Origin: Brucella pituitosa
GTDB lineage: Bacteria > Pseudomonadota > Alphaproteobacteria > Rhizobiales > Rhizobiaceae
Reading direction: 5' to 3'
Assembly: GCF_003049685.1 (NCBI RefSeq)
Contig: NZ_PYSY02000001.1
Coordinates: forward strand, 2,035,001-2,099,000
DNA: 64,000 bases
In this document: piece after piece, positions 9,917 to 62,807 of the stretch
Layout of the letters: each line of letters starts with the position of its first letter
Position numbering within the stretch: the stretch's first letter is position 1
The notes under the pieces: model-generated
The model's input: the letters and a program-made list of their open reading frames with translations, nothing else
What the model was told of the DNA's origin: nothing
Database searches by the model: none
Position numbers and translations under genes: made by a program

Positions 9917-9935
9917 TTTATACAAGCGTATTCGC

Positions 9936-9990
9936 AAGGACCCGGTGAAAGCCCGGGTGGCTCTTCTGGCCGCCTATCCGCCAGACAACG
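9936..9990 (+). ncRNA. Structured leader RNA upstream of sulP, resembling the sul1 motif
   Basis: Between the previous terminator and the SulP gene, the RNA can form a hairpin ACCCGG..CCGGGT (9940-9958) that can close on a GAAA tetraloop with a one-base bulge. A second hairpin CTGGC..GCCAG (9966-9984) follows. Paired, GC-rich hairpins with stable tetraloops upstream of SulP-type transporter genes in Rhizobiales are the description of the sul1 RNA motif. I infer the match from position and shape; a covariance search was not possible. It would act in cis on the transporter gene. Confidence 0.5.
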
Positions 9991-43203: not shown

Positions 43204-43268
43204 TTTGTTTCCTATCCTCACAGATAGCACGCGCCTCGTTGGGGAGGCGTGGCCCGCTGACGAAAATA
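43204..43268 (-). ncRNA. serC-type leader RNA
   Basis: Directly before the serC start, the minus-strand RNA forms CACGCCTC..GAGGCG(C)GTG (43229-43251) and CTATC..GATAG (43212-43227), the last one reaching the GGATAGGA ribosome binding region. This arrangement of two hairpins just ahead of serC in alphaproteobacteria is the known serC RNA motif. Its ligand is not settled. The match is from position and shape. Confidence 0.65.
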
Positions 43269-45239: not shown

Positions 45240-45391
45240 TTATCTGCCCCATCGATTTGTCACGCCGCAACCGCGTCGGAACCGAGTATTCAGGGGCAGA
45301 TTATTCAGGAAAAGTTAAATACAACTTAACCTTGTTTTTTAACTACATTTATTAAGCTTTTCTAAAGTATGCGGCAGGGTATATCAGCAAC

Positions 45392-60326: not shown

Positions 60327-60854
60327 TTAGGAAGCGCCAAAAGCCGTCTTGAGCAGTACGATCTGATCCGACACCGGATTGCCACGCGGAGCGCTTTGCA
60401 GGGAAACGACTTCACCATATACATTGCGATCCATGCGGCGGACACGCGCCTGAAGGCGGATCGAGCGTTCGATGAGCTCAATGAATGCGAATGGAAGTTC
60501 ATTCCAGCCCGGAGCGACATCACCGGCTGAAGGCGTATCAAGACGAACCTTAGCCTTCTCAGCCGCTACCTGCTGGCGGGACATTTCACCGTTGCGGGCA
60601 GCGCGCTGCAACAGGAGCCAGGAAGCAACCTGCATCAGACGGGTGGTCATGCGCATCGATTCGGCAGCATAAAGCGTCGCGGCAACGCGCGAGAGATTGC
60701 GCGCTTCTTCGCGGCCCTCACCGTCGAGATAGCTCGCAGCTTCCTCGACCATATCCATGCCTTCACTGTAAATCGGCTTGAAGGAATCCGAGAACACCAT
60801 GCGTTCAGCAAGGCTGATCATGTTACCCGGCATCTGTCCCTGTTCGCTAATCAC
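60327..60854 (-). CDS. DUF1465-family protein
   Basis: The 175-residue helical protein has the DUF1465 pattern YLDGEGREEARNLSRVAATLYAAESMRMTTRLMQVASWLLLQRA (within residues about 43-86). The family is limited to alphaproteobacteria; a member controls the cell cycle or replication-linked functions in Caulobacter-like species, as I recall, but this is not certain. There is no signal peptide or membrane helix. A start at MPGN (residue 8) is possible. Confidence 0.78.
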   Translation of the reverse strand: MISEQGQMPGNMISLAERMVFSDSFKPIYSEGMDMVEEAASYLDGEGREEARNLSRVAATLYAAESMRMTTRLMQVASWLLLQRAARNGEMSRQQVAAEKAKVRLDTPSAGDVAPGWNELPFAFIELIERSIRLQARVRRMDRNVYGEVVSLQSAPRGNPVSDQIVLLKTAFGAS

Positions 60855-61136
60855 TGCTCTGCCACCTTACATGACCGCACAACGGGCGGACATTCTGTTG
60901 CTCGCATTCTCGTCACTTGAATGCGAATGAAAATTACTGAACAGTCGTTCGACCATGAGGAGAGCTGGGACGGAACAGCTGCATTAGACAAGTCCACGAC
61001 AAATTGCACCTTCATGCACGGTCGCGCAAGTTTATGTTTAACGTTCGGTTAATATTTTTTGGGAGGTTTTAAATGAAGCTTGCAAAGAGCCGAATAGAGA
61101 AGTCGCGCACATACGCTGTGATTCCCCGGAAAAGCA

Positions 61137-61240
61137 TAAAAAAAGAGCCGCAAAGGCGGCTCTCAGGAGTTTAACAGGGGAGGCGTCAAACAGAGTGGCT
61201 AAACCACTCGGTAAGAATCCAGCCGAACTGGATGTAAACC
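61137..61240 (-). ncRNA. Candidate trans-acting small RNA with anti-Shine-Dalgarno loop
   Basis: On the minus strand, in order: ATCCAG-TTCGG-CTGGAT (61233-61217), GAGTGG-TTTAG-CCACTC (61209-61193), GTTTGAC-GCCTCCCCT-GTTAAAC (61191-61169, one G-U pair), then the terminator GAGCCGC-CTTT-GCGGCTC and seven T (61163-61138). The third loop shows CCUCCCC, complementary to a Shine-Dalgarno site, as in the CUUCCUCCC-loop RNAs of alphaproteobacteria. No ORF is present. The 5' end and promoter are not clear. It may be 95-110 nt. Confidence 0.6.
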
Positions 61241-61323
61241 ATTTAACGCTATTAAGATTAATGAAGAGTTAATATCGCGGGTGCGCTGTGGAAAATCACC
61301 GTTCGTATAGCGCATCCCAAACG

Positions 61324-61348
61324 AAAAAGCCGCCCGAAAGCGGCTTTT
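61324..61348 (-). terminator. Rho-independent terminator after opgC
   Basis: On the minus strand AAAAGCCGCTTTCGGGCGGCTTTTTC: GCCGC and GCGGC-type arms around TTTCGG, followed by five T, 12 bases after the opgC stop. Confidence 0.8.
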
Positions 61349-61360
61349 GAAACTGGCTTA

Positions 61361-62554
61361 TTAACCGTGCTGTAAAGCAGGCTTTGGGTTTGAAGCAGCA
61401 GGAACCTTGGTTCCTTCGGCCGCTACAGACTTTGCCGCTGGCTTCTTGCCCCAACCGATAGTCGGCAGCCACTCAAGATAATAAGCCAGTGCGAATTGCA
61501 TCACGACACCGGTTGCGATCAGCAATGTGTCATATGGCAGGCCACCCGGATTAACGAGCTTCATCACCTGTGCAACCATCGCCAGCAGCGTACCGGCAAT
61601 GAAGACAGGCAGCGAATGCTTGCCTAGAATAGCGAGCGGATTATCCGGAGACGTCCGCGCAATGCTGTTCAGTGTCGGAACAACCGCGATCAGATAAGCC
61701 ATCGCCAGCACATGCAGAAGACGCGGAGCCGAAAGGAAAGTCTTGTCGAAACCGGTCAGAACTGCCGGCATACCCATCGAAGCGTCGATACCCCAAAGCG
61801 GAATACGAACCCAAGCAAGCGAGAGTACCAGGTAACCGACAGCAACTGTAATCAGCGCAGGATGTGTCGGCAGCTTACCGCCGCGACGAACATGGATCGT
61901 ACCAGCAATACCAATGGCAAACAGAAACTGCCACGACAAAGGATTAAGGAACCAGACACCTCCGGTCGGATAGTTGATAGGGGCCACACCATACAGACCC
62001 GACAGCAACCATACCGTACCAGACACAGCGACCATCAGCGAAAGGCTGATGCGTGCAAGCAGAAGCAGTAGCGGCGTCATAAGAAGCATGACGGCATACA
62101 TCGAGAGAATGTTGTTGTAGCCGAGCTGATGTCCAAGCGTGACGAGGCCAAGCAGAGCTTCAACCGGCTGCTTGACCAGCGGCCCGATATTGATCTGGGT
62201 CAGAAGCTCACGATGCTTGAGGAAAATGGCAGCGGCAGCAAAAATACCAATCGTTGCAAGCGTCGTCATAATGTGGGCCGTATAAAGCACACACGCACGG
62301 CGCCACATTTTCAATGTCAGCACGAGACGATTGCCCGGCGCAAACTTGCCGCCATAGGCCAAGGCTACAGCCATGCCTGAAATCAGAACAAAAGCTTCGG
62401 CAGAATCGGAAAAGCCGAGATTCTTATGCGTGAAGTGCTCGAAAATCGTTCCGGGTACATGATTGATGAAAATCGTAAGCAGGGCCAAAGCACGAAACAC
62501 GTCGATGCGTGTATCGCGAATCTTTGGCACTATTTTCGCCGTTTCATTCGTCAT
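61361..62554 (-). CDS. opgC: OpgC-domain membrane protein, probable cyclic glucan succinyl modifier (Cgm-like)
   Basis: The 397-residue protein has about ten helices and an OpgC domain (DTRIDVFRALALLTIFINHVPG at residues about 13-34, then GFSDSAEAFVLISGMAVALAYGG). OpgC of Rhodobacter adds succinyl groups to osmoregulated periplasmic glucans. In Brucella, a membrane protein called Cgm adds succinate to cyclic beta-1,2-glucan, and this gene has the size, topology and neighbourhood expected for it. ATG 62554 follows AGG; ATG 62602 is less likely. Confidence 0.8.
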   Translation of the reverse strand: MTNETAKIVPKIRDTRIDVFRALALLTIFINHVPGTIFEHFTHKNLGFSDSAEAFVLISGMAVALAYGGKFAPGNRLVLTLKMWRRACVLYTAHIMTTLATIGIFAAAAIFLKHRELLTQINIGPLVKQPVEALLGLVTLGHQLGYNNILSMYAVMLLMTPLLLLLARISLSLMVAVSGTVWLLSGLYGVAPINYPTGGVWFLNPLSWQFLFAIGIAGTIHVRRGGKLPTHPALITVAVGYLVLSLAWVRIPLWGIDASMGMPAVLTGFDKTFLSAPRLLHVLAMAYLIAVVPTLNSIARTSPDNPLAILGKHSLPVFIAGTLLAMVAQVMKLVNPGGLPYDTLLIATGVVMQFALAYYLEWLPTIGWGKKPAAKSVAAEGTKVPAASNPKPALQHG

Positions 62555-62807
62555 TTCGCCTGCCTGCCGTTTGTTTTTCGTCTGCAATAGCGCAGCACTC
62601 ATTGCCGCCTATATAACTGGTAATTCCGGCAGAACCCGGTTGGTTCCAATCAACTTTCGTTCCAGTGGATAACATAATGCCAACACGAGGCTTTCATCGC
62701 CCCCGAACACTGGCCCGCAAATACCCCATAAATGCAAAGGGGCTGTTCAACGAACTCCTCTTACTTTATGCCCGAATTCCATCAACATTTTTCGCTAGGT
62801 TTGGTTT

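What the first reader, a model, noticed from the sequence alone, without database searches (positions are those of the whole stretch)
61137..61240. Candidate small RNA with a CCUCCCC anti-Shine-Dalgarno hairpin loop
Four consecutive hairpins with clean arms lie in a gene-free gap on the minus strand. The third shows GCCTCCCCT in its loop and the fourth is a terminator with seven T. RNAs with CUUCCUCCC-type loops (the CcsR and cuckoo-type families) act in trans on ribosome binding sites in other alphaproteobacteria. The stems are seen directly; the function is inferred. The RNA would overlap nothing coding, so selection on the structure is the simplest explanation.
Basis: partly seen in the sequence, partly recalled or inferred. 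Interest (0 to 1): 0.75.

Follow-up and report, generated by a model that had tools for sequence, protein, structure and literature searches.

The report
Cell-cycle-linked small RNA beside rcdA
This stretch matches a known but little-studied family of small bacterial RNAs and carries, just upstream, a DNA site of the type read by the cell-cycle switch protein CtrA, beside a gene for RcdA, a protein known in relatives to help destroy CtrA; the RNA is therefore likely a cell-cycle-controlled regulator, predicted to block translation of other messages through one conserved C-rich stretch.

Summary
The hairpins are real and belong to a known sRNA family, Rfam BjrC1505 (RF02356; 69.5 bits, cut-off 50). 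It appears to be the family of S. meliloti SmelC671/sm84, already detected by Northern blot, microarray and sequencing. The conserved core is GUUUGACGCCUCCCUGUUA; the window carries one extra C, not seen in the other 34 genomes of its genus.

Two features are not named in the papers I could search. First, in 217 of 230 core-bearing loci of the order an rcdA gene follows on the same strand (11 of the other 13 loci end too soon). Second, a CtrA-type box, TTAA-N7-TTAA or close, lies upstream in 198 of 244 distinct upstream sequences, against about 2% of shuffles. Outside the order 8 of 12 core loci without rcdA nearby keep it, so it belongs to the sRNA. The 5' third of the Rfam model is thus probably promoter.

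Best reading: a CtrA-controlled trans-acting sRNA pairing with ribosome-binding sites. carD is the best target candidate; ctrA is not supported. CtrA control and targets are inferred.

The parts
61138..61233 (-). predicted sRNA, about 96 nt (5' end by homology with S. meliloti SmelC671; not mapped here)
   Evidence: Rfam RF02356 hit 61282-61138; the S. meliloti 4H41 stretch from ATCCGG to T7 is 100 nt, equal to published SmelC671; ATCC at 61233
61138..61282 (-). full Rfam BjrC1505 match; its 5' part (about 61282-61240) is read here as promoter DNA
   Evidence: box position; the promoter reading is inferred
61258..61272 (-). CtrA-type box TTAACTCTTCATTAA of the sRNA promoter
   Evidence: 198 of 244 distinct upstream sequences carry T[TA][AT]A-N7-TTAA within 150 nt
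61217..61233 (-). hairpin 1 (ATCCAG...CTGGAT)
   Evidence: fold
61193..61209 (-). hairpin 2 (GAGTGG...CCACTC), supported by covariation
   Evidence: 4 of 6 pairs changed on both sides
61172..61191 (-). conserved core GTTTGACGCCTCCCCTGTTA; loop CCTCCCC at 61183-61177, one C more than in relatives; likely the pairing stretch
   Evidence: 63 of 65 loci read GACGCCTCCCTGT, 1 GACGCATCCCTGT, the window GACGCCTCCCCTGT
61138..61163 (-). intrinsic terminator with seven T
   Evidence: stem varies on both arms in relatives
61038..61052 (-). second CtrA-type box, TTAACCGAACGTTAA on this strand, between sRNA and rcdA
60327..60854 (-). rcdA homologue (DUF1465), downstream gene
   Evidence: PDB 3ctw RcdA E 5.1e-36; Pfam PF07323 E 4.4e-56

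Best explanation
This is a small-RNA gene of the known family BjrC1505 (RF02356), whose RNA of about 96 nt is likely made under control of the cell-cycle regulator CtrA and would pair, through its CUCCC(C)UGUU core, with the ribosome-binding sites of other mRNAs and hold back their translation. Shown here: family membership, the conserved core, a covarying hairpin 2, a terminator, a CtrA-type box at a nearly fixed distance upstream, and rcdA downstream across the order. Shown by others for the apparent S. meliloti orthologue (sm84/SmelC671): a discrete transcript that rises on phosphate starvation. Inferred: that CtrA binds the box and activates rather than represses, the exact 5' end, the anti-Shine-Dalgarno mode of action, and the targets. 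The best target candidate is carD; rcdA is not a conserved direct target, and ctrA is not supported.
For: Rfam 69.5 bits. Family found at E <= 0.001 in 35 of 35 genus genomes, 156 of 199 of the family, 245 of 297 of the order and 30 of 289 of the class; 0 of 14 control genomes each time. Box in 198 of 244 distinct upstreams with spacing 7 the commonest in all five groups; about 1.5-2.1% in shuffles of three of the groups. In the 64-kb window 3 strict boxes against 0.27 expected, two of them here. Outside the order 8 of 12 core loci without rcdA in reach keep the box. Order loci outside the family have the upstream box (30 of 30 loose, 10 strict) but no strict box between sRNA and rcdA (0 of 30). 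carD: AACAGGGAG before the start in 7 of 7 genus and 5 of 7 rhizobial genomes tested.
Against: No transcript, CtrA binding or target was measured here. 46 of 244 distinct upstreams lack even the loose box; outside the order, loci that do have rcdA show it in only 5 of 10. A box does not tell activation from repression. The published S. meliloti work calls the sm84 promoter sigma-70-like, with no CtrA site mentioned in the passages seen. The carD site is exact in only 6 of 28 genomes across the order, and 2 of 53 window start regions pair as well as carD (5 of 53 with the window's own loop). The window's extra C weakens that predicted pairing.
Confidence: 0.6

Rival explanations
1. It is a cis-acting leader or attenuator of rcdA: transcription from the upstream promoter either stops at the terminator or reads into rcdA.
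For: rcdA lies downstream on the same strand in 217 of 230 core loci of the order, 183-473 nt from the core in the 65 genus and order loci.
Against: A second strict CtrA-type box lies between terminator and rcdA in 35 of 35 genus loci, 22 of 29 family loci and 109 of 109 testable rhizobial loci. Outside the order 12 of 22 core loci have no rcdA in the fetched flanks. Published S. meliloti RNA is a discrete species of about 80-100 nt. No anti-terminator alternative was seen.
Confidence: 0.12
2. The sRNA is an ordinary sigma-70 stress sRNA; the TTAA boxes serve rcdA only, or CtrA represses rather than activates.
For: sm84 was given a sigma-70-like promoter and detected in six stresses, with a rise on phosphate starvation (PMC2573895, passages). 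rcdA has its own box in the genus and in rhizobia.
Against: The upstream box keeps its place relative to the sRNA in lineages where rcdA is absent and in order loci that lack the second box.
Confidence: 0.25
3. It is a member of another anti-Shine-Dalgarno sRNA family (suhB/AbcR/MmgR, NfeR1, EcpR1, CcsR or cuckoo).
For: Shared theme of CU-rich loops; weak suhB hit, 21.2 bits.
Against: suhB is far below its cut-off of 41, and no third family appears at E up to 1. EcpR1 has another loop and other neighbours. NfeR1-type RNAs carry the motif in all loops, CCUCCUCCC in the related SmelA075/SmelA099; here there is one CCUCCCC.
Confidence: 0.02

Closest known systems
BjrC1505 (Rfam RF02356), alphaproteobacterial sRNA
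   Same: Full-length match above the curated cut-off; terminator and core
   Different: The window loop has one extra C; the 5' part of the model is read here as promoter
SmelC671 / sm84 of Sinorhizobium meliloti (ReC71 of R. etli)
   Same: CUCCCUGU motif, terminator, microsynteny, 100 nt; the S. meliloti 4H41 locus has rcdA downstream and a CtrA-type box upstream
   Different: Rhizobial hairpin 2 differs and the motif is described as single-stranded; strain 1021 sequence not compared
CcnA of Caulobacter crescentus
   Same: Presumed CtrA activation, C-rich loop, CtrA circuit
   Different: Locus at the replication origin; its ctrA pairing has no conserved counterpart here; sequences not compared
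EcpR1 (SmelC291)
   Same: Conserved rhizobial sRNA near cell-cycle genes
   Different: Loop UCCGCCGCAUCU, downstream of divK-pleD, ppGpp regulon, targets dnaA and gcrA
NfeR1/alpha-r14, AbcR, MmgR
   Same: Anti-Shine-Dalgarno mode of action proposed
   Different: Other folds, motif in several loops, or suhB-type model; no Rfam match above cut-off here

Membership tests
BjrC1505 (RF02356) | covariance-model score above the curated cut-off, full length | tested here: met
   69.5 bits against 50, positions 1-140 of 140
SmelC671 family (Reinkensmeier 2011) | conserved CUCCCUGU motif | tested here: inconclusive
   the window has CUCCCCUGU, one C more; 34 of 34 other genus genomes have CUCCCUGU
SmelC671 family (Reinkensmeier 2011) | 3' terminator hairpin | tested here: met
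   61163-61138
SmelC671 family (Reinkensmeier 2011) | same locus as S. meliloti sm84 | tested here: inconclusive
   the S. meliloti 4H41 locus matches in arrangement and length; strain 1021 coordinates not compared
suhB/MmgR (RF00519) | score above the curated cut-off | tested here: not met
   21.2 against 41
EcpR1 (SmelC291) | loop motif UCCGCCGCAUCU and divK-pleD neighbours | tested here: not met
   sequence; motif; the neighbours here are OpgC-type and rcdA
NfeR1/alpha-r14 | anti-Shine-Dalgarno motif in all hairpin loops | tested here: not met
   only one of the loops is C-rich
CcsR / cuckoo | Rfam or sequence match | tested here: inconclusive
   no hit in Rfam scans; whether Rfam holds these families was not checked; loop motif known to me only from the finding
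CcnA | C-rich loop pairing with the ctrA leader | tested here: not met
   28 ctrA leaders examined: longest exact match to the core near the start 4-6 nt, no shared site
CcnA | transcription activated by CtrA | not testable with these tools
   only the box is seen

The most novel reading that the evidence does not exclude
An ancient, class-wide sRNA is wired into the CtrA circuit of Alphaproteobacteria: CtrA switches it on next to the gene for CtrA's own degradation adaptor, and its near-invariant CUCCCUGUU core retunes translation of growth genes such as carD, doing outside Caulobacter the kind of job CcnA does inside it.
Probability: 0.3. Interest if true: 0.8.

Novelty: new member of a known kind. 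Interest (0 to 1): 0.55.

Why it matters
A widely conserved orphan sRNA (245 of 297 order genomes) gains a testable place in the cell cycle. In S. meliloti CtrA was found bound in the rcdA promoter region, yet CtrA depletion did not change rcdA transcription (PMC4433202, passages). The sRNA promoter box upstream of rcdA offers one possible explanation of that peak, alongside rcdA's own box. The CcnA authors expected a counterpart in S. meliloti and did not clearly detect one (PMC8959179, section 12). It also suggests that the Rfam model mixes promoter DNA with RNA.

Tried and rejected
My first idea, that BjrC1505 is EcpR1, was wrong: EcpR1 has another loop and locus. PmaR was considered and dropped; it is described as restricted to Agrobacterium species and one Rhizobium strain. 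The second RF02356 hit in this genome (L002, 37.7 bits, below cut-off) lacks the core and spans two terminator-like hairpins; I take it as chance. rcdA as a direct target: AACAGGGA after the start codon in many genus loci but broken in several (AACAGAG, AACAGCG, AACAGGT), so not conserved; in Bradyrhizobium-like loci AGGCGTTAAC near the rcdA start could pair with GUUUGACGCCU, a lineage-specific lead only (group name inferred). ctrA as target: not supported by this core; 28 leaders, longest exact match 4-6 nt near the start and up to 7 nt within 150 nt, at no shared place. The long-range pairing GCGUUAAA with UUUGACGC in the 145-nt fold is not kept in relatives. RNase J family mRNA has an 11-nt match in 2 of 7 genus genomes; a LysM/BON-like protein 3 of 7 and a DUF937-like protein 4 of 7 (these two names are by eye): weaker leads.

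Rows dropped: loci without the core were left out of the box counts (L002, L100, L108, L110, L113, L362, L363, L368, L378, L379, L381); L360, inside the order, was left out of the outside-order counts. The covariation count used 36 of the 44 references, leaving out rows whose hairpin 2 does not align; rhizobial loci were not given because their hairpin differs. Shuffle controls cover the genus, order and rhizobial sets, not the family and class sets. My note says 46 of 48 for rcdA in L067-L115; one search shows 47 of 49, and 43 of 45 among loci with the core. One search ended with a script error after printing the class rows; the rest ran.

Full report
What is there. On the minus strand, between an OpgC-type gene (61361-62602) and an RcdA gene (60327-60854), lies a 506-nt gap.

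Identity. cmscan of the whole window gives one sRNA family here, RF02356 BjrC1505, 61282-61138, 69.5 bits, cut-off 50. A permissive scan of the region adds only suhB/MmgR at 21.2 bits, cut-off 41. At E <= 0.001 the family is in 35 of 35 genus genomes, 156 of 199 of the family (110 over cut-off), 245 of 297 of the order (212 over cut-off) and 30 of 289 of the class (14 over cut-off, 12 of these outside the order); 0 of 14 control genomes in each.

Relation to published RNAs. Reinkensmeier et al. 2011 (PMC3927594; passages and part 1 of section 2.5 seen) describe the SmelC671 family with a long single-stranded domain holding a conserved CUCCCUGU motif, a terminator, extensive microsynteny, and relatives beyond Rhizobiaceae. 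sm84, the same RNA, was seen by Northern blot at about 80 nt and by microarray under six stresses, and rose on phosphate starvation (PMC2573895, passages); deep sequencing gives 100 nt (PMC2873474, passage). The S. meliloti 4H41 locus L184 carries a DUF1192 gene, the motif RNA and rcdA in that order on one strand, and its ATCCGG-to-T7 stretch is exactly 100 nt. This fits SMc03988> sm84> SMc03989> in arrangement and length; strain 1021 itself was not compared. Madhugiri et al. 2012, which I recall as the source of BjrC1505, was not seen.

The conserved core. GTTTGACGCCTCCCTGTTA is near invariant. Of 65 genus and order loci 63 read GACGCCTCCCTGT, one GACGCATCCCTGT, and only the window GACGCCTCCCCTGT. 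The extra C may be a real variant or an assembly error; reads would tell. In 36 diverse sequences hairpin 2 has 4 of 6 pairs changed on both sides; hairpin 3 has 0 of 7, and its outermost counted pair is broken in 12 of 35. Perfect terminator stems were found in 43 of 44 sequences, in 22 forms (lengths differ too). So structure is under selection in hairpin 2 and visibly in the terminator; the core is kept as sequence.

The neighbour. The downstream gene is an rcdA homologue: PDB 3ctw RcdA, E 5.1e-36; Pfam DUF1465, 4.4e-56. It follows on the same strand in 65 of 65 loci, 183-473 nt from the core, in 43 of 45 further core-bearing loci (not found in L078 and L083) and in 109 of 120 rhizobial contigs, the other 11 loci ending too soon. 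OpgC and RuvC are shared only in the own genus and part of the family.

The promoter. Upstream of the core, mostly at 80-90 nt, lies TTAA-N7-TTAA or a close form; the CtrA consensus TAA-N7-TTAAC is quoted in PMC3616915 (passage). Distinct upstreams (150 nt) with T[TA][AT]A-N7-TTAA: genus 34 of 34, order 29 of 29, family 30 of 34, rhizobial 92 of 125, outside the order 13 of 22; in all 198 of 244, strict form 163. Seven is the commonest of spacings 3-12 in every group; in the genus 5 and 11 are also frequent because TTAA recurs there. Shuffles of the genus, order and rhizobial sets give 1.5-2.1% (loose) and 0.5-0.9% (strict). In the 64-kb window strict boxes occur three times against 0.27 expected, two of them here: 61258-61272 before the sRNA and 61038-61052 before rcdA. 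The second box is present in 35 of 35 genus loci and 0 of 30 order loci (strict), 22 of 29 family and 109 of 109 testable rhizobial loci. Outside the order 12 of 22 core loci show no rcdA in the fetched flanks, and 8 of these keep the upstream box, against 5 of 10 with rcdA. The upstream box therefore belongs to the sRNA. By inference about the first third of the Rfam model is promoter.

How it likely works. CtrA would bind the box over the -35 region and switch the RNA on; the RNA ends at its terminator; CUCCC(C)UGUU would pair with Shine-Dalgarno regions. Target leads: AACAGGGAG 1-14 nt before ATG occurs 70 times in seven genus genomes against 30 for the permuted ACAAGGGAG (the background frequency of the two words was not measured). 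The site before carD (Pfam CarD domains) is in 7 of 7 genus genomes and 5 of 7 rhizobial genomes, gene identity checked in each, but exact in only 6 of 28 genomes chosen across the order, with Mesorhizobium-like genomes lacking it (group names inferred). Against 53 window start regions, 2 pair as well as carD with the relatives' core and 5 with the window's. ctrA: no conserved pairing in 28 loci. rcdA: not conserved.

Published context. In S. meliloti CtrA ChIP-seq found sites in the rcdA promoter region, but CtrA depletion did not change rcdA expression (PMC4433202, passages); fragments averaged 300 bp. Both the sRNA box and an rcdA box lie there in L184, so the peak could reflect either. The CcnA paper expected an S. 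meliloti counterpart and did not clearly detect one (PMC8959179, passages and section 12). Searches for BjrC1505, SmelC671, sm84/ReC71, rcdA with sRNA and CtrA, and SMc03988/SMc03989 listed no paper that I saw to link this RNA with rcdA or CtrA; PMC3927594 does not name rcdA or CtrA in its main text and the review PMC7143759 does not name rcdA. Only open-licence papers were searchable, and supplements, where such a link could stand, were not available.

Verdict. Real, and a member of a known family rather than a new kind. The CtrA-type box and rcdA linkage are strong by sequence; CtrA control and targets remain inferred.

Noticed in passing
window 61177-61180 (-): Four C where 34 of 34 other genus genomes have three, inside the most conserved stretch of the RNA: a real variant or an assembly error.
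   Followed up: partly
window 61240-61282 (-): The 5' part of the Rfam BjrC1505 match looks like promoter (CtrA-type box), so the Rfam family boundaries may need revision.
   Followed up: partly
window 9935-9990 (+): Rfam sul1 RNA (RF03058), 75.8 bits.
   Followed up: no
window 43207-43259 (-): Rfam serC leader (RF00517), 63.6 bits.
   Followed up: no
window 45315-45329 (+): The third strict TTAA-N7-TTAA of the window, neighbours not examined.
   Followed up: no
window 61325-61350: Separate terminator-like hairpin AAAAGCCGC...GCGGCTTTT just after the OpgC-type gene, upstream of the sRNA promoter.
   Followed up: no
L371 85 and 285 (+): Two tandem copies of the core about 200 nt apart in one genome outside the order.
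   Followed up: no
L078 and L083: Two family loci with core and box but no rcdA found in the fetched flanks.
   Followed up: partly
L100, L108, L110, L113: RF02356 matches beside rcdA that lack the CTCCCTGT motif: degenerate or diverged copies.
   Followed up: no
L259 (G000:C1:1060330) and L417: RNase J family gene with AACAGGGAGGC before its start, 11-nt complementary to the relatives' core.
   Followed up: partly
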